Shown: in pieces, positions 1 to 19,121 of the stretch
Layout of the letters: each line of letters starts with the position of its first letter
Numbering within the stretch: position 1 is the stretch's first letter
Virus record (IMG/VR): IMGVR_UViG_3300035703_000012
Location: 64,001-128,000 of that record
Length of the DNA stretch: 64,000 nucleotides
Direction: 5' to 3' (one strand)
Origin: a virus
The notes under the pieces: generated by a model
What the model was told of the DNA's origin: nothing
Seen by the model: the letters and a program-made list of their open reading frames with translations, nothing else
The model's database searches: none
Program-made: the position numbers and the translations under genes

Positions 1-57
1 AGCTCACGAATTGCCAGGGCGGATGCCGGGGTAACTTTCGAAGCCATTGTCGAGTGA
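1..57 (+). CDS. C-terminal end of an upstream gene (partial)
   Basis: An open frame enters from the left edge and stops at TGA 55-57. Its last residues read ..VTFEAIVE. Only 18 codons are visible, so no function can be given. The stop lies about 70 bases before the giant gene, which has its own -10 box. The frame is plausible but too short to prove. Confidence 0.4.
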   Translation, partial: SSRIARADAGVTFEAIVE

Positions 58-116
58 GGCCACAGGGCAATTCTGGGCGCATCCAGACAGCCCAGAAAAG
101 GGTGGCGCCGCCTTGC

Positions 117-122
117 TACAAC
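117..122 (+). promoter_or_regulatory. -10 box for a leaderless transcript of the giant gene
   Basis: TGCTACAAC gives an extended -10 (TGC + TACAAC). It ends exactly 6 bases before ATG 129, so transcription would begin at or next to the start codon. There is no good Shine-Dalgarno before that ATG. The same 6-base spacing recurs at 40243 and 43833. Confidence 0.45.
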
Positions 123-128
123 AGGGCC

Positions 129-3100
129 ATGAACCCCTTGGGTCGCGACCGCCTGCAGCCCGACCAGAACCCGAGCCTGCGCTTCCTCGAGCGCGGGCTC
201 TACGACGCCCTGGGCCACCAGAGCCTGCTCGACGACGGCCTGCAGGACAACGAGCGCTCGCTCGAGTCGCTCTCGGAGTCCGAGTCCGACCGCTTGGGCC
301 AGCAGCTGCTGGCCGAGTCGCGCCTGAGCCGGCCCGACGGCCCCGACCCGGGTCGGGCGGACTGGTTCAAGGAGGTCGGCAACCTCTCGGTCGGGCAGAT
401 CGAGCAGCGCCTCTTGCGACGCGAGGGCCTGTCGCTCAGCGCGGATGGCATGCAGGTCACAGGCGCGTTTGGAACCCGCGACCTGGGCGTGGACGCTTAC
501 ATGGACCTGCAGAGCTGGCGTCGGCAGCTCGACAGAACGGTGCTGCAGGCCAACCGCAACGCCTGGACTCCGGAAGCTGTCAAAGCGGACCTTATGCAGC
601 GCCATCTGCCAGGCTCTGTTGTGCCAACCATGCGCTCCGGCTTGGCATTTGACGGTCACCTGCACCGGTACATGAACATTCTGCAAGGCGCTCAGACAGA
701 TGCGTATCTTGGACTGTTCATGGCAGAGCATCCCGCACTTGCCGCTGGAGCACTTGAAGCGCAAGACCGGAATGTTCAGGTTACGGTTAGAACCAATGCA
801 GCTTTCAACGAACGTGGTCAAGCTTTTGCGCGTGGTGTTTGGAGTCAGTTTAAAAACTACAGCACGGCGCCGTCCGGGATGACGGACCACTACAAGTTTG
901 CTTTAGGAGACATGCAAGATCCTCGGACAGCGCGTGCACTGCTGACCTCTGCCAACGCAACCATGGCCGCACTCGGTGGCGGCGTTCGGCGGGATAACTC
1001 CTTGGTTTCAATGGGGGCAAACTTCGAAAGCAGCGTCATGTTTTCAGCCGAGACGTTTAGCGACGGCGCGGTCTGGCTTAGCATGCACGAGCAGCTACAG
1101 GGCATGCAGCGGTGGGTGCAGTCGGGTGAAACAGACCTCGTCGAAAAGCTGATTTTAGACCAACGTGTCTCGGCCGCACTGGACCTCACCAAGACTGAAG
1201 ATATACGGCAAGCCCTAAGAAACGCGCAAAATCTTATGGGCAGCCAGCTTATGGATCAGTTTACTGGCTTGCAAAAAACAGGCGCCAGCCGAATCTTGTC
1301 GGGCAGTGGCGTAGCAGCAGCGCATAGACAGATGCTGCAGCAGCTGGGTCAAGGTGGTCGCGCGATTTTGGTCAGCTACAACTTTGGTCAAGACATCAGC
1401 AACGAAATAGAAGCAGCAGTTAGACGCGGAGCGGACGTCACACTGCTGCACGGCTCGCGCTGGGAGTTTGGGCAAGAGGGTGGACCCCGGCTTATCCACG
1501 CCACTGAACCAAAGCACAACTTGGACGCCTTGCAGCAACGCCTAGCAGACTCTCCCACTCCTGTTGCCGGAAAACTTACGGTTGTACAAAACGTCAGCAG
1601 CTTGGTGCACATTAAAGCCTCTGTGTTCGAAGCGCCTGGTCAGGCCGGCGTTTTTATTCCCAGCACCATGAACCTGGACGACAACCAGCTTCAAGGCCGC
1701 TACATGGAAACGGAGTACGACGGACCTATTCGCAACATCGGCGCTCTTCTGCCGGAAGGCGAGTACATCCCCTACCAGGAAAGCGTTCGAATGCTGGAGC
1801 GGCTTGTTAAAGTTTCAAGCTTGACCCGTACACTTGCAACAGGCACACAAACACTAGACAGCGCCGTACAGCAAGAACTGGCCAGGCTGCGAACAGAGTA
1901 CGGTCTGACAAGCTACCACGCCAGCTCCGTAAACTTGAACAAAGCTGACGACAACCATCTCAGCTTTAAGGTGGGCGGCACCTTCCGACTGGGAGAAGGA
2001 GTTGGCGCACTCCACATTGATCTTGGCAAGATCATGGATCTTACGGCCTACCGCCCGACCCAAGAAGCGGTCTCGCGGGGCTTTGGGCGCAGCACGACGG
2101 ACCTGTACGTGCCGCAGCTCTCCAAGTTCGTCAACTCCGTGCGGGGCGTCGGCTGGGCCACGTCGGACGATCCGCTGGTCGGCGACGCCCGGACGGCCTC
2201 GGGCCTCGAAGTGCTGGTGGCCGGCATCGCCGCGGCTCAGGCCCAGACCCAGGGCTACCTCAACGCGCTGGTCGACCTCGTGGGCACCGACATGGCCCAG
2301 CAGATCCTGCGCAACCCCTACGAGATGGGCCGGCTGCGCTTCACCATCCGCGAGTTCACCAAGGGCCGCTTCAAGAACTTCGCGGGCCTCGAGCCCGGCA
2401 CCCCCGCCTACGCCGCCAAGCAGTACGCCCAGCTGCTGATGCGCGTGGGCTCCAACGGCCTGCTCGACCTCAACAGCAGCATCGACCTCAACGCCGAGAC
2501 CCTCGACAAGATCCTGGCGGGCGAGCTCACGCGGGCCGACCTCGGCGGACGCAACTACCTGTTCACGGCGAGCGGGCTGTCTCGCTTCAACCGCTACGGC
2601 GACGCCAAGACGGCCCGCATGTACGACGTCGAGATGCTCAACACCTTGCCTGTGGCGGACTTCGACCAGCAAAACGACGACTTCATGTTCCTCATGCCGA
2701 TCGGCAAGCTGGCCCAGCTGCCCCAGCGGCTGCAGAACATCATCTCGACGCGCAATTTGACACCCGTCGTCGAGCAGGAGCTGCTGCAGCTGATGGGCAC
2801 GGACGACCCGCGTGAGCGCGGGCTCGTGGGGCTCAGCCGCTTCGTGGGCAACCGCGTGCGCGCCGCCGACCGCAAGCCCGTCATCCGCTTCCGCGGCTAC
2901 GCCGTGCCGGGCTTCTCTGGCGACCAGAACGCCTACTTGATGGGTGATGCCTTCGAGCACCTGTACCTGGGCAACGAGTCGTTCCGCAAAACCGTCAAGA
3001 TCACGAGCAGCACCGCCATTCCCACCGACATGGGCCGGCTCTTGCACGAGCAGCTCGCCGGTCTGGCCGACACCGCCGACAGCGGCGTGCACCGCCTGAG

Positions 3101-6100
3101 CGGCGACCGGTACTTCCTCAACGCCCAGGCCCTCGACGCGCTGGAGGCCAAGCTGGACCTGGCCGGGCACCGCATCGGCGACACCGGCATGCACATGCTC
3201 CAGCAGCTCGACCTGGGGCTTGCCGGCAAGGAGACGGCCGGCGTGCTGCTCGACCTGTCCAAGGAAGGCAGCGGCCTCGTGCGCACCTCCTCGGGCTGGG
3301 AGTTCACGCTGACGGGCGTGCCGATGGAGCGCATCACGTCGGGCTCGCGCAACCTGCTCGGCGCCAAGGTGCCCTTCGTGATGGCCCTGCGCGAGTCGCG
3401 CTTCTTCCAGGGCATCGACCGACTGGCCCGGGCCATGTACGGCGACATGCCGGGCGGCGTGTACACTGGCCTCAACATGCAGGACTTCAACATCGTCTTT
3501 GGCATGGGCACGCTGAAGACCGGTCAGGTCTTTGTCGAGACGGGCATCGAGATGCTCGAGACGGGCATGTACAAGACCCAGCTGGCCTACTTGCGCAAGG
3601 CGCACAGCGAGGGCCTGGCCCCGCTGCGCCAGATGCAGACCGTCATCAACAAGCTGGCTTCGGGCGTGCAAAACCGCACGGTGCGCCGGGAGCTGGAGGC
3701 CGTGGGCGAGTCGCTGGGCAAGGAGAACTTCACGGACGCCGACTTCGACGCCTTCGAGCGCGTGCTGGACCGCACGGCCGATTACCTGGCCGACAGCCCC
3801 AACAACCTGATCAGCCTGCGCGGCTTCGGTCGGCGCCGGCACGCAGCCGCGGCCATGTTGGCTTTCGGCTTGCACGCCAGCTTCTCGCTCACGCGCCTGG
3901 ACAAGCTGTCGCAGTCACCGAAGGGGCACCAGCTCTTCGACGAGGTGCAGATGGGCGCGCTGGAGGCGCGCGACGGCGCCGGGCGCTTGATGCGCGAGCA
4001 GCTGCCCGACCAGCTGGTGTTCGGCACGATGTACCTGTCGTTCACCAGCAGCGCGAGCGCCCTGACGACGCCGATGTCGAGCCGCAACCGGGTGAACCTG
4101 CTGGCGTACCACCGCTCGAGCACGACGCAGGCCCTCTACGACATGATGGCGCGCTCGGAGGCGATGCAAGGCAAGATGGCGGCGTTCGAGGGCCTGATGG
4201 CCCACGGCCTGCTGGGGGCGGCCGGCGACATGCGCTTCGCCGAAGGGCCGCAGATCTTCTCCGACTACGTGCCCGGCTTGATGATCCAGCACGGCGGACG
4301 CCAGGTGGACCCGTACGTGGCGCTGCAGGATCTGCAAAACCGCATCGAAGCCGAAGCCTTGCACAACCGTCGCGAAGCGGCCCTCGTGGCACAGGAGCAG
4401 GGCCGCTCCATGCTCGGCCTGATGGGTGTAAGCGCCGAAGAGCAAGCCGAGCGCATGGGCCGTCTGCAAGGTCTGACGCAAGAAATCGACGAGGTTCACG
4501 CCAAGCTGCGCGGCGCCATCGCAGCGCTGCGGGGCGACGAGAGCGCGCCGGACGCGGACCGCAAGTGGGCCTACAAGAGCGTGGGCTCGGCGGAGTCTTC
4601 GCTCACGACGCGCACGCTGACGGCCGAGATCGAGGCCGGGGTGCGCACGCAGACGCTCCTGCTGCCGAACGTGGATCCGCGCAACCGAGGCGGGCAGCAG
4701 GTGAGCTACACGCCTGTGCAGTTCCTGTCGCGCGAGCACCTCATGAGCCTGGGTGCCTTCGAGGACTTCGCGCACGACGTCATCCAGCTGCAGGCCAAGG
4801 CGGGCCAGCTGCTCGGGCGCTTGGGCGGCATCCAGCGGCAGGGCCAGGTGTTCATGAGCACCATGAGCGAGCACGACAGCGACGTCTACGACGAGCTGAT
4901 GAGCACGGTGGGCAAGCTGCGCGAAGCTCAGCGCCTGGCGATGACCTCGGGCCTGCAGAAGCTCATCGGCGGCATGCTGGCGCTGCCGGGCACCAACATG
5001 GTCATCGGCACGCTGCCGGAGGTCGAGCTGGGCACGATGGTCGTCTCGGAGCGGGCTTACCAGGTGATGCGCACGGAAGCCGTCAGCGAAATGACGGCGA
5101 GCGTCGAGGCCAACGTGACACTTTTGCGCGAAGCAGCCGCGCAGCGCGGTGAAACGCTCAGCCGACGTCAGGCCACGGCCCAGGCGCTCGGCTTGCTCTT
5201 GAGCGGCGTCAACCGCGAGCTGCACGGCGCGGTGAACGGCTTGCAGCAGATGCTGCTGGACCAGTTCGAACAAGGCTTTACGGCCGAGAACGCGTACCAA
5301 GAACAAATCGACGAACTGTCACTGCAGCGCGACCAGCTAACGCTGGAGATGGATCTGTACCGCCAAAGCATCTACGGCGAAGGCGGTATTGCCGCAGAGT
5401 GGCGAGCGGAAAAAAAACAGCTCGAACGCAAGGCCATGCGCGCAGCTCGACAGCTGGTGGGTTACAACAAAGCCCAGACACAGCTGCATGCAGAGCACCG
5501 CGCAAAGCAGCAGCAGGGGCGTCAGGCCTACCAGGCGCAGCTGCGCGCGCTCAACACGGCCTACGAAAGCCGTCTGTCTGCGCTGGAGGCAGATGCCAAC
5601 GACTTCTACGCCAGCGAGCTGGAGCCTTTGACAGCACTCGAAGCACAGGTCAACGAGTTGACACGTGTGCAGGTCGGCCGCTCCAAGGTCATCTACGCCA
5701 CTCAGCTGTCTCAAGAGCGGCTGGTGCGACTGCGTGACCGCATTGCAGTTCGCATGCAACCTTCGGCGGAAGAAACCTCGCTGCGCCGGGACCGCAGCCG
5801 GTTGCTGCGGCTGGCGGAGCAGCAAAAAATTACCAGCCGTCTCAGCACCGCACGGCATAAGATGCTGCAGCCGCTGCGCGAGCTGCACGGCCGCCAGACA
5901 CCCGCCAGCGCCGCGCAGCTGCGCGATGCGCTCGGCCGTGTGCGCACCCGCAGCAGCGAGCTCGACGCCCGCGAAGCGCAGCAACGCAGCCGCGCCGAGA
6001 GGGTAACCCTCGATGAGCTCCAGGCCACTAACCTCAGCCGGGAACAGCGCGACACCCTCAACGACATCGAGGCCTCGCTGGCCGACCTCGAGCTGGCCCG

Positions 6101-9100
6101 CACGGAAAAGATGTCTGCCTGGCTTGCACGCAAGCGACGCGCGCACGACCTGTTGATGCGCGGCTCCGTTCGGCTGCACGGCATGAAAGACCTGCAGGCG
6201 TCAGGGGCTGACGCCTTGCGGGCCGAGCGCGAGGCGTTGACGGCCCTGCGCGACGACGCCCGCGCGCGACACGCCGCCTACAAGTCGCTCAGCGCAGAGG
6301 CCCGCGGCATCATCGACCAGGACTTCGGCGTGGTGCGCCGAGCGGCGGACATGCAGCATGCGGCCCTGCGCAGCCGCGAGCAGCAACGCTTCGAACAAGA
6401 AAAGAAAGCGCTGGATGCGGGCTACCAGGACCAGCTGCGCGCCATGCGCAACCGCTTGCTCGAAGGACGGCAAACCGCTTTGAGCGACGTGACCGAAGAG
6501 GTTTTCGACCGCCTGACGGACCTGGCCGAGCTGAGCGGCAACAGCCCCGACGTGCTGCTCGGCGACTTCCGAGAAGTCGAGACGCTGCAAGAAACGCTGC
6601 AAGACCGGTTGCTGGGCGCTGCAGATGTGCCCCTTACAGCAGACAGCAAGCAGCTTCACCTGGCGCGTCAAGACACCGCGGTCGGCCAAGAACACCTTAA
6701 AGCCTACGGGGTCACCCTAAAGCCAACCATGAGTCCTGACAGCCAGCTCCTCGGCAACCCCGTGTCACCACCCGATGCAGTGGCGGCTCAGCAGGCCCGA
6801 GGCATCTTCAACCAAGCGGACCAGGAGCGCTACGAACAGATTCAACGCGAGGAGCAGCGCGTGCGCGACCACTTGCAAGGTCTGCGCAACCAGAAGAACC
6901 GACTGACGGCTGGTATACAGCAGCTGCGCCAGGCACGTCAGGGTCAAGGCCGCACGTCGGTGCAGCAGGTGCTGCAGAGCGTGCTGGGCGCCCTGGTCGA
7001 CAGCAACGAGACGGTCCGGGCCATCTTCATGCGCGGGGGCATGCAGCGCGCGGGCGCCCCGGTCGGTCCCGACGCCGTGCTCTACAGCCGGGTGGCGCGC
7101 CAGAGCGAGCTCAACCAGCGCAACCCCAACATCCGCATCGACGAGGCGCTCTCCACCCGCGGCGTGTTCTTCAACCTGGGCGCGATGGGCTTCTTCCTCG
7201 GCGACTTCGACGGCGACACCGGCTCCATCTTCAACCTGGCGGACTACACCCGCCTGCGCACGCTGGCCCTCTCGGGCGCGCCGATGAGCGAGGAGGACGC
7301 CCGGGTTTACCAGGACGTCGAGAAGCGCATGCGCATGGGAGCAGCCGAGCAGGCCTGGAGTTTCGCGCGCCACTACACCAGCCTTACGGAGGCCTTTGCG
7401 CCCGAGCGGTTCTTCTCGGACCTGCCAGGAGCCACGGGCAGCCTCGAGCAGGACCGCGAGCACTTCTTCCGGCTGGTGCAGCGCGCCGAGGCCGAGGTGC
7501 TCAAGCTGCCCAACGCCCCCTACAGCAGCCTGCAGGCCGCGCGCATGGCCATCCCTGACGCCCGGCAGCTGGGCGCCACGCTCTTCGGCGAGGGCTCCGC
7601 GGAGGCCGCGCAGTTCGCCGCCTTCAGCGACCGCGAGAAACAGGCCACCAACCTCGCCGAGAGCCTCAACCAGTACGTGGCCGAGATGCGCGAGACCCAC
7701 AACAAGTTCCTGGAGTACAGCCTCGACGCGCGGCACGAGGGCCGCAACGCCCGCGAGGTGTACCAGAGCTTCTTCCGCCGGGAGGTGGGCTCGAAGGCCT
7801 TCGCCGCGTCCGTGGCCGAGTTCGAGAAGGCCCTGAAAAAGGCCAGCGCCACCGTCAACGACACCTCCTTCAAGGACGGCGGCACGCTGAACTACAACGT
7901 GCTGGTCGGCTACTTCGTGCAGACCTCGTTCGCCAGCAGCCAGGTCATCTCGAAGGCCTTCGAGTTCTCGTACACGATGCAGCTCGCCTCGGACATGGGC
8001 TACGCCAGTGACATGGCCCGCGGGCTCTCGCAGGAGGTGGCCGGCGAGGCCCGCGACCTGCGCCAAGGCACCATCCTGATGCTCCAGCAGATGGCCCGCG
8101 AGGCCATCAAGCCCAAGGACGGCGGCGCCCAGGAGCTCGGCATGCTGCGCACGCTGCTCCAGGGCGCCAACCGCGACACCATCGTCGTGCGCTCCATCAA
8201 CCGCATCTTCGAGCGGCCGCGCATGAAGGGCCTCAACTGGCTCTCGATCCTCTCGACCGGCCAGACGATGCTCAACGAACGCGTGGACGCCGACGCGATC
8301 GCCCACCGCATCGCGCTCACCGCGGAGCCGCCAACCGCCACGCCCGTGGGCGCCAGCCCCGAAGCCGAAGCCCAGCTCGCGCCGGACGCAACGGCGCGCC
8401 CCAGCTGGCTCGAGCGTCTGGTCAACCTGGGCGTGAGGACGCTGGAGGCCAACGCCGACGTGCCGCGCGACATGACGTGGGAGGCCGTCTACGACGAGGT
8501 TTCCACCGCCGTCCGGGACTACCACAGCGGAACGGTCGAGGCCGCCTTCAAGAACGGCACAGGCCTGCAGCTCATCAACCTGAAAGAAGACCAGCTTGCA
8601 GGCATGGACGCCGAAGAGCGCAAGACCTTCATCAAGACCCAGACCGACAGCTACCTCGACCGGATCGTCGGCCGTCAGACCAACCTGGCCATCGAGATGG
8701 CGCTGTCGGCGCGTGGCGTGCAAGAAACGCTCAGCACCTACCGCCGGGGCATCACCAGCGGAGACGTCAACGAGGTCAACCAGCTCTCGGCCACCATGGG
8801 CCTGCAGGAGCGCGCGCTGGGCTTCTACGCCATCGCGGCCCGCGGCAAGTTCGTCGATGCGGACGCCGTGGAAGCCGGCATGAAGAACCTGTTCCAGGAC
8901 GTTGACCACCTGGAGCTGCCCGAGGCGCAAGAACGCCTGCGCAGCGTCGGCCGCGAGGTGACGGGGGCCAGCGCCTACGGCGACAGCCTCGCGCGCATCT
9001 ACGGCATCGTCCGCACCCAGGGCACGGACTTGCAGGCAGCCATTTACCGCAGCGGGGCCGAGGAGCGCCGGGTGGATGCCGGCGAGCGTCAGCAGGCACG

Positions 9101-10199
9101 GCGCTTCGCCGTGGCCAACCTCGCGGCCATCAACCAAGGCAACGCCGGCGACCTCGACCAGCTCAGCGACCGCCAGCTTTTCGACCGGCTGTCGCATCAC
9201 ACCGGGGCCTTGCACGAGCACCTGGAGAAGAACAACCAGGCGCACGAGATTCAGCGCCTGCAGCAGACGCAGAACCTGCTGGGCTTCACGGGGGCCATGG
9301 ACCACCTGGCGCAGGGCTACCAGGAGAAGCAGGCCGCAGCCCAGCAGGCCGCGGGGCAGACCAGCGCCCAGCAGCAGCACCGCACGGCCCAGGTGCTGGA
9401 CGCGGCGCTCAGCAACCCGCACGCCAACAACGCGATCTTCAACGTCGGCCTCGGCACCGTGATGGGCTTCGGGGCCGCCATGATGTTCGCACCTCCCGCC
9501 ATGGCCGCGGAGCAGGACACCATGGAGGGCCTCGGCAGCATGTTGGCCGCCACGCTGGCCTTCAGCAAGCCCTCCACGATGTACCGGCAGATCAACCGCT
9601 CGAACAAGGAAGAAAAAGAAAAGCTCGGCGAGACGGCGATGCTGACCGCAGCCCTGGTGGGCGGCATCGGCGGGGCCCAGCTCGGCACCATGGCGGCAAG
9701 CCAGCTCGCCGACAGCGTTTTCAACCCCGAAGACGAGCGCCACAGCCTGCGCACCCAGCGGCACCTGCGCAACAAGGTCCGCTTCGCAGGCGGCACGGGC
9801 GGCGCAATCGGCGGCGCGGTGGGCGGCACCGTGGCGGGCTTGTTGGCCCAAGGCCTGCTGCAGCGCGCGTTCAACATCGGCCCCGTCAACCCCATGGAGC
9901 AGATGATGCTGGGCGTGGCCGGCTTCTTGCCCGACAACGCCGACGAGATCCAGGCGGGCGACGAGTTCGTCGCGGAAGAGGAGGCGGGCATCAGCGTCAC
10001 GGGCACGCTCGAGCTCGTGGACGAGGCCGGGGAGTACATCGACCAGACCGTCTGGCAGGTCAGCTGGGCCAGCTTCGACGACGAGCACGGCTTCGAGGCG
10101 TTCGGCAGCCTCGTGGAGGGCGACCAGGACACCTACGTCAGCGGCATCAACTTCGAGGCGTACGCCGCCGAGGCGGACCTGCCGACCGAGCCGTTCTGA
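129..10199 (+). CDS. giant PLD-domain / RNA-polymerase-like protein (probable virion protein)
   Basis: 3,356 aa. Seen: two phospholipase-D HKD motifs, HYKFALGD at H254 and HIKASVFE at H494, each followed by a Asn-containing stretch, as in a complete bilobed PLD-type phosphodiesterase or nuclease. A DFDGD motif sits at residues 2359-2363 in the context LGDFDGDTGSIF. In double-psi beta-barrel RNA polymerases (beta', YonO, crAss-like phage enzymes) these Asp residues bind the catalytic Mg. Residues about 1720-2250 are long charged helices likely to form coiled coils. Near the C-terminus are two glycine-rich hydrophobic stretches (about 3110-3145 and 3220-3260), which fit membrane passage during injection. 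Inference: an injected virion transcriptase-like protein. The start was set at ATG 129 because of the -10 box; GTG 54 is also in frame. Bases about 600-2040 are lower in GC than the rest. Family membership rests on motifs only. Confidence 0.7.
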   Translation: MNPLGRDRLQPDQNPSLRFLERGLYDALGHQSLLDDGLQDNERSLESLSESESDRLGQQLLAESRLSRPDGPDPGRADWFKEVGNLSVGQIEQRLLRREGLSLSADGMQVTGAFGTRDLGVDAYMDLQSWRRQLDRTVLQANRNAWTPEAVKADLMQRHLPGSVVPTMRSGLAFDGHLHRYMNILQGAQTDAYLGLFMAEHPALAAGALEAQDRNVQVTVRTNAAFNERGQAFARGVWSQFKNYSTAPSGMTDHYKFALGDMQDPRTARALLTSANATMAALGGGVRRDNSLVSMGANFESSVMFSAETFSDGAVWLSMHEQLQGMQRWVQSGETDLVEKLILDQRVSAALDLTKTEDIRQALRNAQNLMGSQLMDQFTGLQKTGASRILSGSGVAAAHRQMLQQLGQGGRAILVSYNFGQDISNEIEAAVRRGADVTLLHGSRWEFGQEGGPRLIHATEPKHNLDALQQRLADSPTPVAGKLTVVQNVSSLVHIKASVFEAPGQAGVFIPSTMNLDDNQLQGRYMETEYDGPIRNIGALLPEGEYIPYQESVRMLERLVKVSSLTRTLATGTQTLDSAVQQELARLRTEYGLTSYHASSVNLNKADDNHLSFKVGGTFRLGEGVGALHIDLGKIMDLTAYRPTQEAVSRGFGRSTTDLYVPQLSKFVNSVRGVGWATSDDPLVGDARTASGLEVLVAGIAAAQAQTQGYLNALVDLVGTDMAQQILRNPYEMGRLRFTIREFTKGRFKNFAGLEPGTPAYAAKQYAQLLMRVGSNGLLDLNSSIDLNAETLDKILAGELTRADLGGRNYLFTASGLSRFNRYGDAKTARMYDVEMLNTLPVADFDQQNDDFMFLMPIGKLAQLPQRLQNIISTRNLTPVVEQELLQLMGTDDPRERGLVGLSRFVGNRVRAADRKPVIRFRGYAVPGFSGDQNAYLMGDAFEHLYLGNESFRKTVKITSSTAIPTDMGRLLHEQLAGLADTADSGVHRLSGDRYFLNAQALDALEAKLDLAGHRIGDTGMHMLQQLDLGLAGKETAGVLLDLSKEGSGLVRTSSGWEFTLTGVPMERITSGSRNLLGAKVPFVMALRESRFFQGIDRLARAMYGDMPGGVYTGLNMQDFNIVFGMGTLKTGQVFVETGIEMLETGMYKTQLAYLRKAHSEGLAPLRQMQTVINKLASGVQNRTVRRELEAVGESLGKENFTDADFDAFERVLDRTADYLADSPNNLISLRGFGRRRHAAAAMLAFGLHASFSLTRLDKLSQSPKGHQLFDEVQMGALEARDGAGRLMREQLPDQLVFGTMYLSFTSSASALTTPMSSRNRVNLLAYHRSSTTQALYDMMARSEAMQGKMAAFEGLMAHGLLGAAGDMRFAEGPQIFSDYVPGLMIQHGGRQVDPYVALQDLQNRIEAEALHNRREAALVAQEQGRSMLGLMGVSAEEQAERMGRLQGLTQEIDEVHAKLRGAIAALRGDESAPDADRKWAYKSVGSAESSLTTRTLTAEIEAGVRTQTLLLPNVDPRNRGGQQVSYTPVQFLSREHLMSLGAFEDFAHDVIQLQAKAGQLLGRLGGIQRQGQVFMSTMSEHDSDVYDELMSTVGKLREAQRLAMTSGLQKLIGGMLALPGTNMVIGTLPEVELGTMVVSERAYQVMRTEAVSEMTASVEANVTLLREAAAQRGETLSRRQATAQALGLLLSGVNRELHGAVNGLQQMLLDQFEQGFTAENAYQEQIDELSLQRDQLTLEMDLYRQSIYGEGGIAAEWRAEKKQLERKAMRAARQLVGYNKAQTQLHAEHRAKQQQGRQAYQAQLRALNTAYESRLSALEADANDFYASELEPLTALEAQVNELTRVQVGRSKVIYATQLSQERLVRLRDRIAVRMQPSAEETSLRRDRSRLLRLAEQQKITSRLSTARHKMLQPLRELHGRQTPASAAQLRDALGRVRTRSSELDAREAQQRSRAERVTLDELQATNLSREQRDTLNDIEASLADLELARTEKMSAWLARKRRAHDLLMRGSVRLHGMKDLQASGADALRAEREALTALRDDARARHAAYKSLSAEARGIIDQDFGVVRRAADMQHAALRSREQQRFEQEKKALDAGYQDQLRAMRNRLLEGRQTALSDVTEEVFDRLTDLAELSGNSPDVLLGDFREVETLQETLQDRLLGAADVPLTADSKQLHLARQDTAVGQEHLKAYGVTLKPTMSPDSQLLGNPVSPPDAVAAQQARGIFNQADQERYEQIQREEQRVRDHLQGLRNQKNRLTAGIQQLRQARQGQGRTSVQQVLQSVLGALVDSNETVRAIFMRGGMQRAGAPVGPDAVLYSRVARQSELNQRNPNIRIDEALSTRGVFFNLGAMGFFLGDFDGDTGSIFNLADYTRLRTLALSGAPMSEEDARVYQDVEKRMRMGAAEQAWSFARHYTSLTEAFAPERFFSDLPGATGSLEQDREHFFRLVQRAEAEVLKLPNAPYSSLQAARMAIPDARQLGATLFGEGSAEAAQFAAFSDREKQATNLAESLNQYVAEMRETHNKFLEYSLDARHEGRNAREVYQSFFRREVGSKAFAASVAEFEKALKKASATVNDTSFKDGGTLNYNVLVGYFVQTSFASSQVISKAFEFSYTMQLASDMGYASDMARGLSQEVAGEARDLRQGTILMLQQMAREAIKPKDGGAQELGMLRTLLQGANRDTIVVRSINRIFERPRMKGLNWLSILSTGQTMLNERVDADAIAHRIALTAEPPTATPVGASPEAEAQLAPDATARPSWLERLVNLGVRTLEANADVPRDMTWEAVYDEVSTAVRDYHSGTVEAAFKNGTGLQLINLKEDQLAGMDAEERKTFIKTQTDSYLDRIVGRQTNLAIEMALSARGVQETLSTYRRGITSGDVNEVNQLSATMGLQERALGFYAIAARGKFVDADAVEAGMKNLFQDVDHLELPEAQERLRSVGREVTGASAYGDSLARIYGIVRTQGTDLQAAIYRSGAEERRVDAGERQQARRFAVANLAAINQGNAGDLDQLSDRQLFDRLSHHTGALHEHLEKNNQAHEIQRLQQTQNLLGFTGAMDHLAQGYQEKQAAAQQAAGQTSAQQQHRTAQVLDAALSNPHANNAIFNVGLGTVMGFGAAMMFAPPAMAAEQDTMEGLGSMLAATLAFSKPSTMYRQINRSNKEEKEKLGETAMLTAALVGGIGGAQLGTMAASQLADSVFNPEDERHSLRTQRHLRNKVRFAGGTGGAIGGAVGGTVAGLLAQGLLQRAFNIGPVNPMEQMMLGVAGFLPDNADEIQAGDEFVAEEEAGISVTGTLELVDEAGEYIDQTVWQVSWASFDDEHGFEAFGSLVEGDQDTYVSGINFEAYAAEADLPTEPF

Positions 10200-11496: not shown

Positions 11497-11820
11497 GGGT
11501 CTTGCTACCTCGCGCGTCGGGGGCTTGCCGGGGCTGGCCCAGGCGTGCTTCGAGCATCGCAGAGCCTCGCAGGCCAAAGCTGGGCGACGTGCGGCTTTCA
11601 GGGCCTGGCACCGCCATGGTCCCCGCCTGTCGCAGCCCTGCCTGCCGGTGCGTTAGCCCCCGGGGTTTTGGAGCCGGGGACGATTCTGGGCAAGGCCGGC
11701 CGCCAACAAGGTAAAAACTTTTACCTTACGCCTCGCGACAGGCGTGAAGCGTGCAGGCGTCAGGCTTTCAGGGCGTAAGAGGGGGATGGACCCGGTCGGC
11801 GTGAGGCCTCGAAGGTTAAG

Positions 11821-12604: not shown

Positions 12605-13507
12605 ATGTCCGCACTAAATGCGCTGTTCGCAGCGCTGCGGGAGTTCATCCTCCCCGAAACGGCCTGCCTGGAGGCCCAGGAGGAGACCCTTGCCACCCCG
12701 GTGGGCGGCGCCGTGGTGGTGTACAACACCACCGCCTCGTTCGACCAGGACGAGACGGTGGTCTACACCATCTCGTCCGGCAAGGCCGGCGAGGGCCGGA
12801 CCTCGACCGGCCGGGTGTGCCACGGCCTGGAGGGGGGCATGGTCGTGGGCCCCTCTCGGGGCGGGAGCACCAGCTCCCCTATGCTCAACGGGTACCTCAT
12901 GGCCATCGACGGGGACACCCGTGCCACCGTGCACGGTGTGGCCATCCGCGGCCACAGCTACCCCGACGGGCTCTACGCCCGCTTCGGGGTGGAGCTTAAC
13001 CTGAGCCAGAGCGCCTACAACGCCCTGGCCCGCGCCATCCGGGGCAAGGCGGAGTTCCAGCTCCGCATCACGGCGCTGCGGGGCGCCTACGGGGTGAACA
13101 ACAAGAAGTTCAACCCCGATCTCGGGGGCGAGTTCACGGAGTACGTCTACGGGCGTGTCCGTGAAATGCGCTCCCCGGTGGAGCCCATCCGCATCGAGGT
13201 CCTCTACCCGGGGCACCCCGAGTGGGTCGTCCCAACGGTCGAGGCCGTCTCCCGCAAGGGGGTCTACGGCACGGGCACCCGGGCCCAGGCCCGTCGGGCG
13301 GCCGACCTCGCCCAGGTCTTCGCCAACCTGGGCACGGGGGCTTCGGCTCCTGTGCCCACCCCCACCCCGACGGCGGCCACGGCGGCTCCCACCCAGGAGC
13401 CGGCCGTGACGCCGGCGGCCGACGCCACGGCGGACGCCGAGGCCCAGGCCCTGCTCGACCAGCTGATGGGGCAAGCCCCTGAGGCTGACGAGCCCGACCT
13501 GGGCTAG
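12605..13507 (+). CDS. unknown protein, paralogue A flanking the RNA-polymerase-like gene
   Basis: 300 aa, no recognised family. It aligns with the 279-aa product of 18282-19121 along most of its length. Shared landmarks are VVYT near 55-60, DGDT..ATVHG near 100-110, DGL.ARFG near 120, YGVNNK near 160, VSR.GVYGT near 215 and the C-terminal tail EAQA.LDQLMGQ. A Pro/Thr/Ala-rich linker separates the tail from the folded part. Start ATG 12605 is preceded by AGGAAAGG. Expression is probably shaped by the structured element and terminator just upstream. Placement on both sides of the polymerase-like gene suggests related work, but function is unknown. Confidence 0.85.
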   Translation: MSALNALFAALREFILPETACLEAQEETLATPVGGAVVVYNTTASFDQDETVVYTISSGKAGEGRTSTGRVCHGLEGGMVVGPSRGGSTSSPMLNGYLMAIDGDTRATVHGVAIRGHSYPDGLYARFGVELNLSQSAYNALARAIRGKAEFQLRITALRGAYGVNNKKFNPDLGGEFTEYVYGRVREMRSPVEPIRIEVLYPGHPEWVVPTVEAVSRKGVYGTGTRAQARRAADLAQVFANLGTGASAPVPTPTPTAATAAPTQEPAVTPAADATADAEAQALLDQLMGQAPEADEPDLG

Positions 13508-13648: not shown

Positions 13649-16600
13649 ATGTTCGAGCAGACGATCTTCGAGGACGGTTACGTCCTCGAGGTAATCACGG
13701 TCGAGGCAGACGAAGTTTGCCCGGCCGCCGACCTGGCCCTGGCGAAGGCCGAGAAGGCCGACGCCACGACACGGGCCAAGGCGCGCCGCAAGGCCCGCAA
13801 GGCCCGCAAGGCCCGCAAGGGCACCGCTGCCCAGGTCCTGGTGGACTTGGGCAACGCTCTGCGCAAGCGGGGCGTCAAGGTCGTCGCCGAGGCCAAGGCC
13901 AAGGCGGCGAAGGCCCCGAAGGCCAAGGCCCGCAAGGCCAAGGCCAAGAAGTCCACGCACCAGAAGGGTCTGGCGCGTGGCATCCAGATCCGGTCCCGCC
14001 TCGCCCGCAAGGCGAAGGCGGCCGCCAAGGTGCGGGCCTACGTGCCCACCTTGGTTCGCCTCGCGCGGGTGCAGACCCGTGCGGTCGGGGCGACCGGAAG
14101 AAAGGAGAACCTCGTGAATCCCAACAACCTCTACATCAACGGCCTGAGCGAGGCCGTGGAGGTGCTGAACCAGGTGTCCGACGACGTCGGCATCGGGTTC
14201 GACTTCTACAACTCCACCACGAAAGCCAGCGTGGTGGAGATCGCTAAGGGACGCCTGCCCAAGGAGTCCCACAACGTGCTCGTCCTCAACGGCGAGGTCG
14301 ACTACATCGACGATGCCACCTACGCCCTCGCGGTGGTGGCACTGACCTGCGGCGTTCCCCTCGTGGATCGTCCGGTCTTCGTCGACGGCGACATCGACGG
14401 GGTGGACAGCTACTGGGGTGACTGGGCGCTGTCCCTGCCCCAGTTCGACCCGCAGCACCTGAGCGGCAACGCGAAGGTGTGGGTGCTCCCGGGTACCGGT
14501 GGGGTGCTCGACGTGGAGGACGAAGCGAATGCCAAGTGGGTTCTCACCCCGCAGGCGTTCGTCAGTTCGCTCGTCGAGCGCTCGGTGATCGACCAGAAGC
14601 GGTTTGCTGCCATGCTTGCCCTCATGGGCGGCGAGAAGCACACCGTGAAGGGCAAGGTCGCCATGATCGTCCGCCGGGGTCGCGACGAGCTGGTCTTCCA
14701 GCCGGCCGACAAGACCCTGAACGGCAACCCGCTCCGCAACGGGTACTGGGTCGAGGGGCTCGACAACGAGGGTTACAAGGCCCTCTTCTGGGCGACCTGG
14801 TACGCGCTCACGGGCGAGTCGGGCAACACGATGAAGGGGCGCCTGGCGTTCCTGACCGAGTTGTTCGGCGACCCCGGCCACGGCGAGCTCCGGCTCGGCG
14901 CGGTGGGCGAGTACTACGGCAACCAGCCTGGCAAGCTGGTGGTGAAGGCCACGACGGAGACCCTCGGCTTCGAGGTCACCAACGGCGGGACCGACACCGT
15001 GCTTGAGATCCTCGAGCACTGCTACGGGCAGGAAACTCCGGTTACGGCGCTCCCGAGCCACCAGGTCGACAACGTCGCCATCGGCGAGTTGGCCTGCGCG
15101 GGCAAGGGCTTCGCGATCACCAAGAACGGGGACGACTTCACCGTCGTCACCCGGGTCCCCGCTTCCACGGAGATCAAGAAGGTGGTCAACCGGTTCGCCC
15201 TCATCAAGGCGAGCTGCGAAGCCGTGCTCAAGCACGGTCAGCGCTCGTCGGGGGTGGTCCCCAGCCCGGTCGCAACCCGCACCTCGGACGGAAGCCTGGT
15301 GCGCTTCCACGGCGTGAAGACGCGCGTCGCCATCATCGGTGACTGCGTGTCCTTCAACGACGGCTCCGGCACGGCACACCTGAGCGAGGATGCCACGATC
15401 ACGACGTACCGTGACGTGGTCCTCAAGGCCAAGGTCCCTGTCGCCGGCCTCGACGCCGACACCGCCATCTCCCAGGTGAAGGCCTCCACCTTCATCGCCA
15501 CGGAGTGCGCGGAAGGCGAGTACGCGTTCTCGGTCGAAGGCGCCCCGCGTGCCAAGAACCGGCGCAACGCTCGTCGCACCCCCGACCCCACCAAGGTCGA
15601 GTTCCGCTACGACGCCAAGTCCGAGACGGTCACGGTCCTCGTGCCGGCTCGGGAAGAGAACACCTCCGAGGTGGCGAAGTTCGCCAAGGAGGGCGTCAAA
15701 GCGGTCGGTCGCAACAACCCGCATCTCCGCGTCTTCGCCGCGGGGGATCGGAGCAAGGAGCTCGACGCCACCCTGTTCATCGGCCCGGAAGGGCTGAAGG
15801 GTCTCCACGAGAACATCCTGGAGATGGCGTGCTTCCGGTACGGCGTTGAGGTTGTGCGTCCCGCGCACAACGGAGCCCCGCCGGAAGTTCGGGACCTGGT
15901 CAACCGCCTGGTGGCGGACCCGGCGGCAACGCCGGAGGTCGAGGTGGTCTACGACAACCTCAGCCACGACCAGTACGAGCTCTACCGCCAAGAGCACTCC
16001 GGCAACCCGTCGTACGGGTTCTCGGAGGACAACGGCGTCTACACCATGACCTGGAAGGGTCGTGCGATCGTGGGCGACGTGGTGCTCGCGGTGGAGAACA
16101 CCCCAATCTACCTGTCGATGGGTCGCTCCAACCTCACGGTGGAGATGACCCTCGCGCTGTCCGCCATCAGCCCGGAGCTGGTGGCGTACTACACAGGCGA
16201 TCTAAAGCCCGAAGCCGTCATCGAGCTGCCCGCGGTCCACGCGGCGCTCTCCGCCATGGAGTACTTCCTGGTGTGGGCTGGTGGTGTGGATCCGTTCGAG
16301 CTGGCGGGTGACCCCCGTTTCTCCTCGGCGGAAGGTCGTCGGTACAAGGAGCGCTGCTTCGCGTTGCAGCGTCTCCTCAACTGTGTCAACGCGCGCACGG
16401 CCCCGGATGGCGTGCCTGTGTTCGAGGTGGATCCCACCGAGAACGCGAGCATCGACACCACGGGAACGGACCGGGCCATCTTGCGGCGCCTCGCCAAGGC
16501 GTTCAAGAACGGCCTCGTGTTCCGCTACCAGGGGCAGGAGGACCTGTACCTCGACTTCAACGCCATCCGAGAGATCGGACCGGTGGACGAAGACGACAAC

Positions 16601-18076
16601 GGGTTCTCGTACGTCGAGGAGTTGGCCGCCTTCGTGCGGTTCCTCGGGCGTGCGAAGTCGTTCGCTCCGGCAGTTCAGCAACGTAGGACGGAACGGTTCT
16701 TCAACCTGATGCGCAAGCATCTCACGTCCGCCGTGGCTGAGTCTCCTCGGTTCATCGCGAAGATGCTGCGGCCCATCCCGGCTCACGTCACGAAGGTGAC
16801 GACCATGAGCTGGGTGAAGCCCGGAGAAATCCGCATCAACCCCAACGATCCGCGTGTGCTCAGGGGCGAAATCCGCGAGGATGACGTCCTTATCAGTGAG
16901 CGCTGCCCGGTGTACTACCCGGCAGCAGGACAGGTTGTCCTCGACGCTCGGATCAAGGTTGGCCTCTGGGCCGTGAACCCCCTGTGGTGGCATGCCGCCA
17001 ACGAGGGTGACGCGGACGGTGACCAGTTGTTCGCAGCCCTGGTGCCCGGCCTCCTCAAGGGGCACGTGCTCCGTCAGTTCGCTTCGGTGGGCTGGCTCAG
17101 CACGGACGGCTACTACCGGTTGCGCGCGGCAGGGTCGCTCCCCTTCCTCGACTTCGTTGAGGATGCGGCCGCCAAGAAGGGCTTCGCGAGCCACAGCTAC
17201 GACACCCTCCCCAGCGGGAAGCCGGGGGCGTTCCAGTTCTTCGAGGCTCCCCTCTCGAGCTGGCGCAACACGATCCGAGAGATCCAGCTGCAGTACAAGG
17301 TCCGGGTGGGGCAGGGCTACGCCCTCAAGCACCTGACGCTGTACATCCTGCTGGCGGCCAAGGCTTGCACGGGGTCCGACCCCGCGTTTGTCGAAGCCGC
17401 TGCGGAAGCCCACGTGGCTTGCGGCCGTTTGGTCTACGAGGGACTCGGCCTGGCCGGGTACACCGCGGAAGCCAAGGTGTTCTTCGACGCACTCCCGCGT
17501 CTCGCTTATGACGGCTTCGTGCTGGTCGAGCGTGCCGGGATGCCTCTCGAGGAGCGCTACTGCGTGGTCACGCAGGAGGAACTCAAGGAGCTCGAGCTCG
17601 GTCAGGATGACACCTGCTATCAGGGTACTTCCGCGCTGCAGCGCCTCTTCGAGGACTGCACCGGGTACCAGCTCTCAGAGCAGGCTGCCGAGATCGTCCG
17701 CATCGCGCGTCGCATCCACGTGTGCGCGCGGGACATGGCCAAGGGGAAAGAGAGCCCGAAGTTCAAGGACGAGCCCTTCATGGGTCTCACCTTGGGCTTC
17801 TTCGCGCCGATCGCTCAGATGATGCGTCATGCGTCGAAGGGTGAACTCGGTCACGGAGCCCAGGTGGACGCGGCTGTCGCTGCGTACACCGAGGGGTTCG
17901 GCTTCGAGGAGGGCCCGGTGGCCCTGGTGGACCTCGTTGACGAGCGGGCCGTCCGGTACTTCTTCGGGTCTGACCCGTTGGTGACCGGTCTGGTCTTCCG
18001 GGCGCTCAACACGCAACGGGGCATGCTCAACGCGCGACGCCAGCAGGCCGAGCGCAACAGCGTGTTCTTCGCGTAG
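13649..18076 (+). CDS. RNA-polymerase-like protein with double-psi barrel signature
   Basis: 1,475 aa as one open frame. Seen: HAANEGDADGDQLFAALVP with D1121, D1123 and D1125, close to the beta' catalytic motif NADFDGDQMAVHVP. The preceding 60 residues (GEIRINPNDPRVLRGEIREDDVLIS.. then RCPVYYP) match the spacing of the beta' segment just upstream of that motif. This fits single-chain two-barrel RNA polymerases such as YonO, not the T7 type. The first 155 residues are extremely Lys/Ala/Arg-rich, like a histone-H1 tail. An internal AAAGGAG-GTG at 14114 could start a 1,320-aa form without the tail. ATG 13649 has an upstream AAAGGGAA. Flanked by paralogues A and B. Likely job: transcribing phage genes. 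Confidence is high that it is a gene, moderate for polymerase. Confidence 0.72.
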   Translation: MFEQTIFEDGYVLEVITVEADEVCPAADLALAKAEKADATTRAKARRKARKARKARKGTAAQVLVDLGNALRKRGVKVVAEAKAKAAKAPKAKARKAKAKKSTHQKGLARGIQIRSRLARKAKAAAKVRAYVPTLVRLARVQTRAVGATGRKENLVNPNNLYINGLSEAVEVLNQVSDDVGIGFDFYNSTTKASVVEIAKGRLPKESHNVLVLNGEVDYIDDATYALAVVALTCGVPLVDRPVFVDGDIDGVDSYWGDWALSLPQFDPQHLSGNAKVWVLPGTGGVLDVEDEANAKWVLTPQAFVSSLVERSVIDQKRFAAMLALMGGEKHTVKGKVAMIVRRGRDELVFQPADKTLNGNPLRNGYWVEGLDNEGYKALFWATWYALTGESGNTMKGRLAFLTELFGDPGHGELRLGAVGEYYGNQPGKLVVKATTETLGFEVTNGGTDTVLEILEHCYGQETPVTALPSHQVDNVAIGELACAGKGFAITKNGDDFTVVTRVPASTEIKKVVNRFALIKASCEAVLKHGQRSSGVVPSPVATRTSDGSLVRFHGVKTRVAIIGDCVSFNDGSGTAHLSEDATITTYRDVVLKAKVPVAGLDADTAISQVKASTFIATECAEGEYAFSVEGAPRAKNRRNARRTPDPTKVEFRYDAKSETVTVLVPAREENTSEVAKFAKEGVKAVGRNNPHLRVFAAGDRSKELDATLFIGPEGLKGLHENILEMACFRYGVEVVRPAHNGAPPEVRDLVNRLVADPAATPEVEVVYDNLSHDQYELYRQEHSGNPSYGFSEDNGVYTMTWKGRAIVGDVVLAVENTPIYLSMGRSNLTVEMTLALSAISPELVAYYTGDLKPEAVIELPAVHAALSAMEYFLVWAGGVDPFELAGDPRFSSAEGRRYKERCFALQRLLNCVNARTAPDGVPVFEVDPTENASIDTTGTDRAILRRLAKAFKNGLVFRYQGQEDLYLDFNAIREIGPVDEDDNGFSYVEELAAFVRFLGRAKSFAPAVQQRRTERFFNLMRKHLTSAVAESPRFIAKMLRPIPAHVTKVTTMSWVKPGEIRINPNDPRVLRGEIREDDVLISERCPVYYPAAGQVVLDARIKVGLWAVNPLWWHAANEGDADGDQLFAALVPGLLKGHVLRQFASVGWLSTDGYYRLRAAGSLPFLDFVEDAAAKKGFASHSYDTLPSGKPGAFQFFEAPLSSWRNTIREIQLQYKVRVGQGYALKHLTLYILLAAKACTGSDPAFVEAAAEAHVACGRLVYEGLGLAGYTAEAKVFFDALPRLAYDGFVLVERAGMPLEERYCVVTQEELKELELGQDDTCYQGTSALQRLFEDCTGYQLSEQAAEIVRIARRIHVCARDMAKGKESPKFKDEPFMGLTLGFFAPIAQMMRHASKGELGHGAQVDAAVAAYTEGFGFEEGPVALVDLVDERAVRYFFGSDPLVTGLVFRALNTQRGMLNARRQQAERNSVFFA
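14101..14116 (+). promoter_or_regulatory. internal ribosome site and GTG start in the polymerase-like gene
   Basis: AAAGGAGAACCTCGTG gives an ideal Shine-Dalgarno and GTG start, in frame, exactly where the basic Lys/Ala-rich region ends. It could produce a second, tail-less protein. Confidence 0.55.
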
Positions 18077-18255: not shown

Positions 18256-18281
18256 GGCGTTTGTCCAGAAAAGAGGACCCC

Positions 18282-19121
18282 ATGTTCCGTTTCCTCGCCA
18301 CCCTGCTGGGTGGCATCCCGGCGGCCGTCGAAGCCGCCACCATGCCCGAGGCCCCCACGGCCACGGGCCCCGTCACCCTCTACAGCTCCTCGGCCCTCGT
18401 GGCCCAGGAGGAGCTCGTGGTGTACACCCTGGCCCACAAGCCGGGTGGGCGAACCAAGACCAACACCGGCCGTCACTGCGTCGCCCTCCAGGGCGGCGAG
18501 CTGATCGGTCCGGCCAAGACCGGGGGTTCCTCCCCCATGGTGTATGGCCACGTTCTGGCCGTCGACGGTGACACGTTCGCCACGGTCCACGGCTTGCCCC
18601 TGCAGGGGCACGCTTACGCCGACGGGCTCCACGCCCGCTTTGGCATCGAGGGCAACCTCGACGAGCGCGCGTACACCCGGATCGCGGCGGCCCTGGGTCG
18701 CAACCCGGGGGCGCAGCTGCGCGTCACGGCGGTGCGCAGCCGCTACGGCGTGAACAACAAGCGCTACGACTCCCGCTTCGGCGGGGAGTTCGTTGAGCAT
18801 GCCTACGGGGCGGTCCGGGAGCTGCGTGCTCCCGTGACCATCCTCAAGGTGGAGCTGGTCCCTGAGGGGACCGACGGCTGGGTGGCCCCGGCCGTGAAGG
18901 CCGTCTCCCGCGAGGGGGTGTACGGCACGTCCGAGACCCCCAAGGCCCACAAGGCCGCGGACCTCAAGAAGGTCTTCGGCAGCCTGGGCCAGGGGCCGGT
19001 CTACGTGCCGGCCGCCACGACCGCCGCTCCCGCCAAGGAGCCGGTCGCCGCCCCCGCGGCTGACGAGGAGGCTCAGGCCATCCTCGACCAGCTCATGGGG
19101 CAGGAGCCCGACCTCGGCTAA
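18282..19121 (+). CDS. unknown protein, paralogue B flanking the RNA-polymerase-like gene
   Basis: 279 aa, paralogous to the product of 12605-13507 over nearly the whole length, including the DGDT..ATVHG, YGVNNK and EAQAILDQLMGQ blocks. The N-terminus (FRFLATLLGG) is mildly hydrophobic. ATG 18282 follows AAAGAGGA at good spacing; the frame is open to a TTG seven codons upstream. Function unknown. Gene and leader element were evidently duplicated together. Confidence 0.85.
   Translation: MFRFLATLLGGIPAAVEAATMPEAPTATGPVTLYSSSALVAQEELVVYTLAHKPGGRTKTNTGRHCVALQGGELIGPAKTGGSSPMVYGHVLAVDGDTFATVHGLPLQGHAYADGLHARFGIEGNLDERAYTRIAAALGRNPGAQLRVTAVRSRYGVNNKRYDSRFGGEFVEHAYGAVRELRAPVTILKVELVPEGTDGWVAPAVKAVSREGVYGTSETPKAHKAADLKKVFGSLGQGPVYVPAATTAAPAKEPVAAPAADEEAQAILDQLMGQEPDLG

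What the first reader, a model, noticed from the sequence alone, without database searches (positions are those of the whole stretch)
13649..18076. Second, separate single-chain RNA polymerase candidate with DADGD catalytic loop
HAANEGDADGDQL in a segment matching the beta' run-up to NADFDGDQ points to a two-barrel polymerase of the YonO type. It replaces the usual Phe with Ala. Two different double-psi polymerase candidates in one 64-kb window suggest an early, virion-borne and a late, newly made transcriptase.
Basis: partly seen in the sequence, partly recalled or inferred. Interest (0 to 1): 0.85.

Follow-up and report, generated by a model that had tools for sequence, protein, structure and literature searches.

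The report
Unrecognised cyanophage-type RNA polymerase gene
A virus of the group that includes the Microcystis phage Ma-LMM01 carries a long unannotated gene that very probably encodes its own one-chain RNA polymerase, distantly related to the cell's enzyme, although papers on its cultured relatives say those phages rely wholly on the host's polymerase.

Summary
The ORF is real: window 13649-18076 (+), 1475 aa, with HAANEGDADGDQL at residues 1115-1127. It belongs to an unnamed family (PHROG 30979) shared with Ma-LMM01 gp064 and other Microcystis phages (26-28% identity), 18 IMG/VR contigs and a 3410-aa Microcoleus phage protein. The triad is invariant (DADGD, DGDGD, DTDGD).

The family carries the mark of the catalytic (DPBB-A) barrel of two-barrel RNA polymerases. 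An R-x-P lies 36-37 residues before the first catalytic Asp; in 12 sequences of five known families it lies 35-43 before (1.5-3% by chance). A profile match to the P23-45 virion polymerase gp96, upstream of the triad and in register, beats every permuted control.

The second barrel is only suggested (Lys803 in a WKG motif). Two fold predictions failed (pLDDT 30) and decide nothing. No specific link to YonO was found. The neighbouring giant ORF (DFDGD) lacks the R-x-P spacing and any signal outside the motif, so "two polymerases" is not established, and neither is the early/late scheme.

Verdict: a new single-chain two-barrel RNAP family (about 0.8). Interest: published statements that MaMV-DH01 lacks an RNAP and that Ma-LMM01 depends on host sigma-70 at all stages need re-testing.

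The parts
13649..18076 (+). CDS P0001, 1475 aa: candidate single-chain two-barrel (double-psi beta-barrel) RNA polymerase
   Evidence: homologues
13745..14038 (+). Lys/Arg/Ala-rich N-terminal tail (about aa 33-130); residues 1-140 hold 38 K/R, 12 D/E. Ma-LMM01 gp064 (33 K/R, 2 D/E) and the Microcoleus protein (23 K/R, 3 D/E) also have basic N-termini
   Evidence: function (DNA tether or packaging) is inference
15995..16168 (+). Candidate DPBB-B segment (aa 783-840) with WKG; Lys803 at nt 16055-16057
   Evidence: best of 26 Lys windows in aa 500-1060 against a matrix from gp64, gp96, YonO and beta, p = 0.0011 per window; suggestive only, no profile support
16766..17068 (+). DPBB-A, catalytic barrel (about aa 1040-1140)
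16901..16909 (+). R1085-C1086-P1087, counterpart of R425-A-P of E. coli beta' (R-x-P 36 residues before the first Asp)
   Evidence: invariant in the family; spacing test
17009..17023 (+). D1121-A-D1123-G-D1125, catalytic Mg-binding loop
   Evidence: invariant triad in all homologues
17441..17476 (+). Second conservation peak, GLGLAGYTAEAK (aa 1265-1276); could belong to the bridge-helix/trigger-loop region (inference)
   Evidence: 42% identity to gp064 in aa 1251-1300; motif also in the Microcoleus protein
12605..13507 (+). 300-aa protein just upstream, paralogue of the downstream one; beta-rich domain, Ala/Pro linker and acidic C-terminus by eye
   Evidence: 49% identity to 18261-19121; only two copies in the record
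18261..19121 (+). 286-aa protein just downstream, paralogue of the upstream one
54..10199 (+).

Best explanation
P0001 is a single-chain DNA-dependent RNA polymerase of the two-barrel (double-psi beta-barrel) superfamily. It defines, with Ma-LMM01 gp064 and the Microcoleus phage protein WOL31509.1, a family not recognised before in the literature searched. Shown here: a conserved gene family in one phage clade; a catalytic-barrel signature with an R-x-P loop 36-37 residues before an invariant D-x-D-G-D triad; a register-true profile match to the virion RNAP gp96 of P23-45. Inferred: the three Asp hold two Mg2+ ions; Arg1085 contacts the incoming NTP or RNA 3' end as beta' R425 does; Lys803 in the WKG motif is the basic residue supplied by the second barrel upstream; the C-terminal conserved block serves as bridge helix and trigger element; the basic N-terminal tail binds DNA. 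In infection it would transcribe phage genes independently of host RNAP. Whether it travels in the virion or is made after infection is open; I lean slightly to virion-borne, because the relatives are large multidomain proteins with a zincin-like HExxH motif, and P23-45 gp96 also combines a metallopeptidase with an RNAP.
For: Family: tblastn E 2e-13 to 8e-13 to nine Microcystis phage records, PHROG 30979 E 1e-14, 18 IMG/VR loci, Microcoleus phage E 3e-15 to gp064. Triad kept as DADGD/DGDGD/DTDGD. Conservation peaks on the catalytic loop: 40% identity in aa 1101-1150 against about 20% elsewhere. R-x-P at 36/37/37 residues before the first Asp; in 12 sequences of five accepted families it is at 35-43; random rate 1.5% (35-39) to 3% (35-44). 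hhalign family versus gp96: score 36.0, E 0.0027, 35 columns ending 33 (ours) and 35 (gp96) residues before the triad, with 120 column-permuted controls reaching at most 24.4; repeated with another alignment, E 0.0054. With the triad masked, gp064-gp96 is matched by 5 of 4000 random segments (none in register), Microcoleus-gp96 in register by 7 and P0001-gp96 in register by 39 of 4000. P0001 versus E. coli beta' core: 2 of 500 shuffles. Microcoleus barrel segment: best Pfam match CDC48_N, itself a DPBB family, E 0.09, below cut-off.
Against: No Pfam or PDB sequence match at all for P0001. The second barrel is not identified by profile; the KLRGLG.K lysines of the two relatives have no counterpart in P0001, which offers only K803. 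The gp96 profile match has a low hhalign probability (11%) because the alignments are shallow. Both AlphaFold jobs failed (pLDDT 30 and 29.7). The Ma-LMM01 transcriptome paper found sigma-70-like sequences before all gene classes (PMC5780444). No activity data exist.
Confidence: 0.8

Rival explanations
1. P0001 is a two-barrel polymerase, but not a transcriptase for phage genes: for example a primer-making enzyme for replication, or an RNA-templated enzyme like the eukaryotic RNAi polymerases.
For: The superfamily also contains PolD and RNA-dependent polymerases (PMC10770324, PMC7824862). The catalytic barrel alone does not fix the template. The record also encodes an A-family DNA polymerase, a DNA polymerase processivity factor-like protein and an RNR-like protein, so a role in replication is possible. 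Early and late Ma-LMM01 promoters look like host sigma-70 sites (PMC5780444).
Against: All characterised phage members named in the papers read are DNA-dependent RNA polymerases (YonO, gp66, gp64, gp96). Ma-LMM01 codes for a separate primase, gp134 (PMC5780444).
Confidence: 0.1
2. P0001 holds a DPBB barrel but is catalytically dead or serves another function, for example as a structural or DNA-binding virion protein.
For: No clear Lys pair for the second barrel; a small residue (Ala) in place of Phe/Tyr inside the triad; a long basic tail.
Against: The three Asp, Gly and the R-x-P are invariant over lineages only 24-34% identical, which is hard to explain without catalysis.
Confidence: 0.07
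3. Chance or convergent motif: an unrelated metal-binding loop such as an EF-hand-like Ca site.
For: D.DGD does occur by chance in other proteins: a 275-aa predicted protein elsewhere in this record has DADGDID.
Against: The EF-hand pattern is not met (no Gly at position 6, no Glu at 12); invariance across lineages; R-x-P spacing; profile match outside the motif.
Confidence: 0.03
4. One reading: P0002 is an early virion-borne RNAP and P0001 a late newly made one, as gp96 and gp64 in P23-45.
For: P0002 is a giant ORF next to the structural module, with glycine-rich hydrophobic C-terminal segments typical of ejected proteins and a DFDGD; a shuffle score to gp64 of Z = 3.1 with the motif included. 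Such pairs are common among phages with two-barrel RNAPs (PMC10770324).
Against: With the motif masked P0002 resembles no known RNAP; R-x-P lies at 28 rather than 35-43; no homologue of P0002 in phages or IMG/VR, so conservation cannot be tested. P0001's relatives look at least as much like virion proteins as like nvRNAPs.
Confidence: 0.2

Closest known systems
Virion RNAP fused to the tape measure protein gp96 of Thermus phage P23-45 (PMC10770324)
   Same: DPBB-A with R-x-P (38) and DFDGD; best profile match of the family, in register; gp96 also carries a metallopeptidase domain, and the gp064 and Microcoleus relatives carry an HExxH motif
   Different: P0001 is a separate 1475-aa protein, not a tape measure; it has no HExxH; Ala instead of Phe in the triad; a basic N-terminal tail
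YonO of Bacillus phage SPbeta (PMC5467207)
   Same: single chain, R-x-P (43) and DNDGD, phage-encoded; a WVKG motif resembles WKG of P0001
   Different: no significant sequence or profile similarity; P0001 is 1.8 times longer
gp66 of crAss-like phage phi14:2 and relatives
   Same: large single-chain phage RNAP with R-x-P (39) and DFD[IV]D; gp66 is annotated from virion proteomics
   Different: no profile similarity beyond these elements; the fourth motif residue differs (Ile/Val versus Gly)
gp64 non-virion RNAP of P23-45
   Same: R-x-P (38), DYDGD, and WKG preceded at nearly the same distance by FS, as in P0001
   Different: 616 aa and compact; no significant profile score
Ma-LMM01 gp064 and its orthologues (PHROG 30979; Microcystis phages)
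   Same: true homologue over the catalytic region; basic N-terminus; unannotated
   Different: has HExxH and KLRGLG.K motifs that P0001 lacks; 1673 aa

Membership tests
Two-barrel (DPBB) RNA polymerase superfamily | D-x-D-x-D Mg-binding triad | tested here: met
   D1121/D1123/D1125, invariant in all homologues
Two-barrel (DPBB) RNA polymerase superfamily | R-x-P loop 35-43 residues before the triad (empirical over five families) | tested here: met
   36/37/37 in three lineages
Two-barrel (DPBB) RNA polymerase superfamily | Catalytic barrel recognisable beyond the triad | tested here: met
   family profile versus gp96 above all 120 permuted controls, in register; P0001 alone is weak (39 of 4000 segments)
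Two-barrel (DPBB) RNA polymerase superfamily | Second DPBB supplying two basic residues | tested here: inconclusive
   K803 in WKG is the best candidate; no pair, no profile match
Two-barrel (DPBB) RNA polymerase superfamily | Fold: two DPBBs forming one active site | tested here: inconclusive
   two AlphaFold jobs with pLDDT about 30
Two-barrel (DPBB) RNA polymerase superfamily | Template-dependent RNA synthesis | not testable with these tools
   needs purified enzyme
YonO-like family | Sequence similarity to YonO beyond the few superfamily residues | tested here: not met
   shuffle Z 0.9, hhalign E 0.51
P23-45 gp96-type tape-measure-fused vRNAP | Fusion to a tape measure protein | tested here: not met
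   P0001 is a separate 1475-aa ORF with no PHROG tail family match
crAss-like gp66 family | Profile similarity to gp66 | tested here: not met
   hhalign E 0.91
Multisubunit RNAP (cellular or phiKZ-type) | beta and beta' on separate chains; Pfam RNA_pol_Rpb1_2 | tested here: not met
   PF00623 finds nothing in the record but rings in all 14 control genomes
EF-hand Ca-binding loop | DxDxDG with Glu at position 12 | tested here: not met
   DADGDQLFAALV: Gln at 6, Val at 12 (sequence)

The most novel reading that the evidence does not exclude
A whole clade of myoviruses (Ma-LMM01 and other Fukuivirus, the Microcoleus phage and this high-GC phage) delivers with its DNA a single-chain two-barrel RNA polymerase of a new family, joined in some members to a zincin-like protease motif and in one to an inserted NADAR domain, so that these phages start transcription without host RNAP; this phage adds a second, independent giant polymerase (P0002).
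Probability: 0.2. Interest if true: 0.82.

Novelty: new variant of a known kind. Interest (0 to 1): 0.62.

Why it matters
Ma-LMM01 and its relatives are the cultured model phages of toxic Microcystis blooms. The MaMV-DH01 paper states that its genome lacks an RNA polymerase (PMC9927357), and the Ma-LMM01 transcriptome paper concludes that all phases depend on host sigma-70 (PMC5780444), leaving open how three temporal classes arise with little change in host transcription. A phage polymerase at gp064, directly upstream of the early gene block gp054-gp063 and in the same orientation, gives a testable answer. It also adds a deep branch to single-chain two-barrel RNAPs, which bear on how cellular RNAP arose.

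Tried and rejected
AlphaFold of aa 476-1475 with 14 Fukuivirus rows, and of the catalytic barrel alone with 12: pLDDT 30 and 29.7, useless, so no fold search was run. The MSA could not be deepened: IMG/VR scans with P0001 alone, A1, A2 and the Microcoleus protein gave only Fukuivirus relatives, and one genome-contig scan gave none; no plasmid match. Pfam, PDB and PF00623 searches were negative. Pairwise similarity to beta' outside the motif is not significant, so I do not rest the case on it. Similarity of the flanking paralogue pair to gp065/gp063, which look alike by eye, was not supported by BLAST. P0002 homologues were sought in phages, IMG/VR, Ma-LMM01, MaMV-DH01 and the Microcoleus partial record: none. 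A first null set of D.DGD segments was too small and contaminated and was replaced.

Full report
What is there. The window lies at 64001-128000 of a 168,796-bp IMG/VR virus record. The ORF 13649-18076 (+) is intact, 1475 aa, with typical codon-position GC. HAANEGDADGDQL is at residues 1115-1127. No tRNA is present in the window. The phage is a myovirus: portal, major head and tail sheath proteins are recognisable in the record. Its major head protein matches only Ma-LMM01-type Microcystis phages and the Microcoleus phage My-WqHQDG, so P0001 and its relatives sit in related phages.

Relatives. Pfam and PDB sequence searches find nothing. PHROG 30979 (unknown function) matches at E 1e-14 over residues 1061-1284. 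tblastn finds the same region in nine Microcystis phage records at 26-28% identity; in Ma-LMM01 it is gp064, 1673 aa, 'hypothetical protein'. IMG/VR adds 18 close relatives of gp064, two of them with DGDGD. gp064 in turn finds a 3410-aa protein of the Microcoleus phage, E 3e-15, with DTDGD. Conservation between P0001 and gp064 peaks at the catalytic loop (aa 1101-1150, 40%) and at aa 1251-1300 (42%) against about 20% elsewhere.

Is it a two-barrel polymerase? Known families of this superfamily are hardly detectable from one another by sequence, so I calibrated on them. (a) In E. coli beta', P23-45 gp96 and gp64 (two phages each), YonO and six crAss-type gp66 proteins an R-x-P lies 35-43 residues before the first Asp of the triad; P0001 has it at 36, gp064 and the Microcoleus protein at 37; chance is 1.5-3%. 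The Arg corresponds to beta' R425. Arg and Pro are among the few invariant columns of the family. (b) A family profile against the gp96 profile aligns 35 columns that do not contain the triad and end 33 and 35 residues before it, score 36.0; 120 column-permuted controls reach at most 24.4. A second alignment of the family gives the same columns. (c) With the triad masked, gp064 matches gp96 better than all but 5 of 4000 random protein segments, none of those in register; Microcoleus 7 and P0001 39 of 4000 in register; beta', YonO and gp66 against gp96 do no better than chance in the same test. (d) P0001 against the E. coli beta' core reaches a score met by 2 of 500 shuffles, in register, but this depends on the motif region. 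(e) The Microcoleus barrel segment's best Pfam match is CDC48_N, a DPBB family, below cut-off. Together these support a DPBB-A catalytic barrel.

The second barrel. P0001 has FSEDNGVYTMTWKGRAIVGD (aa 791-810), like FSRRGNEIFRAWKGVIVTHP of gp64 and GNVYAGLKGTVIVDP of gp96. Lys803 is the top of 26 lysines in aa 500-1060 in a matrix test, p 0.0011 per lysine. The leave-one-out controls of that matrix were mixed (gp64 found well; YonO and beta not), so this is suggestive only. The two relatives share KLRGLG.K, reminiscent of DKMAGRHGNKG of beta, but P0001 lacks it. Profile comparison did not find the second barrel. Both AlphaFold runs were uninformative.

The neighbour. P0002 (54-10199 in the window, open for 3475 aa from record position 63772) has DFDGD, but with R-x-P at 28 residues, no similarity to any known RNAP outside the motif and no homologue found. 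It remains a candidate only. No other RNAP-like protein was seen elsewhere in the record.

Mechanism and timing. By analogy with the superfamily, DADGD binds two Mg2+, Arg1085 contacts the substrate, and a basic residue of the other barrel stabilises the transition state. In Ma-LMM01 gp064 lies directly upstream of, and on the same strand as, the early block gp054-gp063 (PMC5780444). The relatives carry a zincin-like HExxH, and the P23-45 vRNAP is fused to a metallopeptidase-bearing tape measure protein (PMC10770324), so virion delivery is plausible, but nothing here proves it.

Novelty. Single-chain two-barrel phage RNAPs are known (YonO, PMC5467207; gp66, gp64 and gp96, PMC10770324), and many phages with such enzymes carry two. 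This family was not found in the papers searched, and the MaMV-DH01 paper explicitly reports that no RNAP is encoded (PMC9927357). The supplementary lists of PMC10770324, which could include it, were not readable here.

Noticed in passing
L045:325-10554 (-), residues 2963-3094 of the Microcoleus phage protein: A NADAR domain (Pfam E 3e-20) is inserted between the catalytic barrel and the conserved C-terminal block of the polymerase-like protein: possibly an anti-defence enzyme carried inside a polymerase.
   Followed up: partly
Ma-LMM01 gp064 residues 242-246 (L002); Microcoleus protein residues 1054-1058 (L045): HExxH (HELVH, HELFH) zincin-like motif N-terminal to the polymerase region; Peptidase_M78 E 0.007, below cut-off, in the Microcoleus protein. 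Absent from P0001.
   Followed up: partly
window 54-10199: P0002 has two HKD/phospholipase-D-like motifs by eye (HYKFALGD near residue 280, HIK near 519) and two glycine-rich hydrophobic segments near 3127 and 3251: it looks like an ejected virion protein.
   Followed up: partly
window 12605-13507 and 18261-19121: The polymerase gene is flanked on both sides by a pair of 49%-identical paralogues with no PHROG match. Ma-LMM01 gp064 is also flanked by two small proteins with Ala-rich linkers and acidic ends (gp065, gp063), without detectable sequence similarity.
   Followed up: partly
L024:9544-10368 (-), about nt 9876: A predicted 275-aa protein beside the large L024:6121-9531 (-) ORF contains DADGDID: an example of the motif occurring without polymerase context.
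   Followed up: no
L027:6113-16000 (-): Another giant ORF (more than 3296 aa) on the minus strand near the end of the record, not examined beyond the absence of D.DGD in the part seen.
   Followed up: no
window 10756-11577 (-): PhoH-like ATPase gene on the minus strand between the two polymerase candidates.
   Followed up: no
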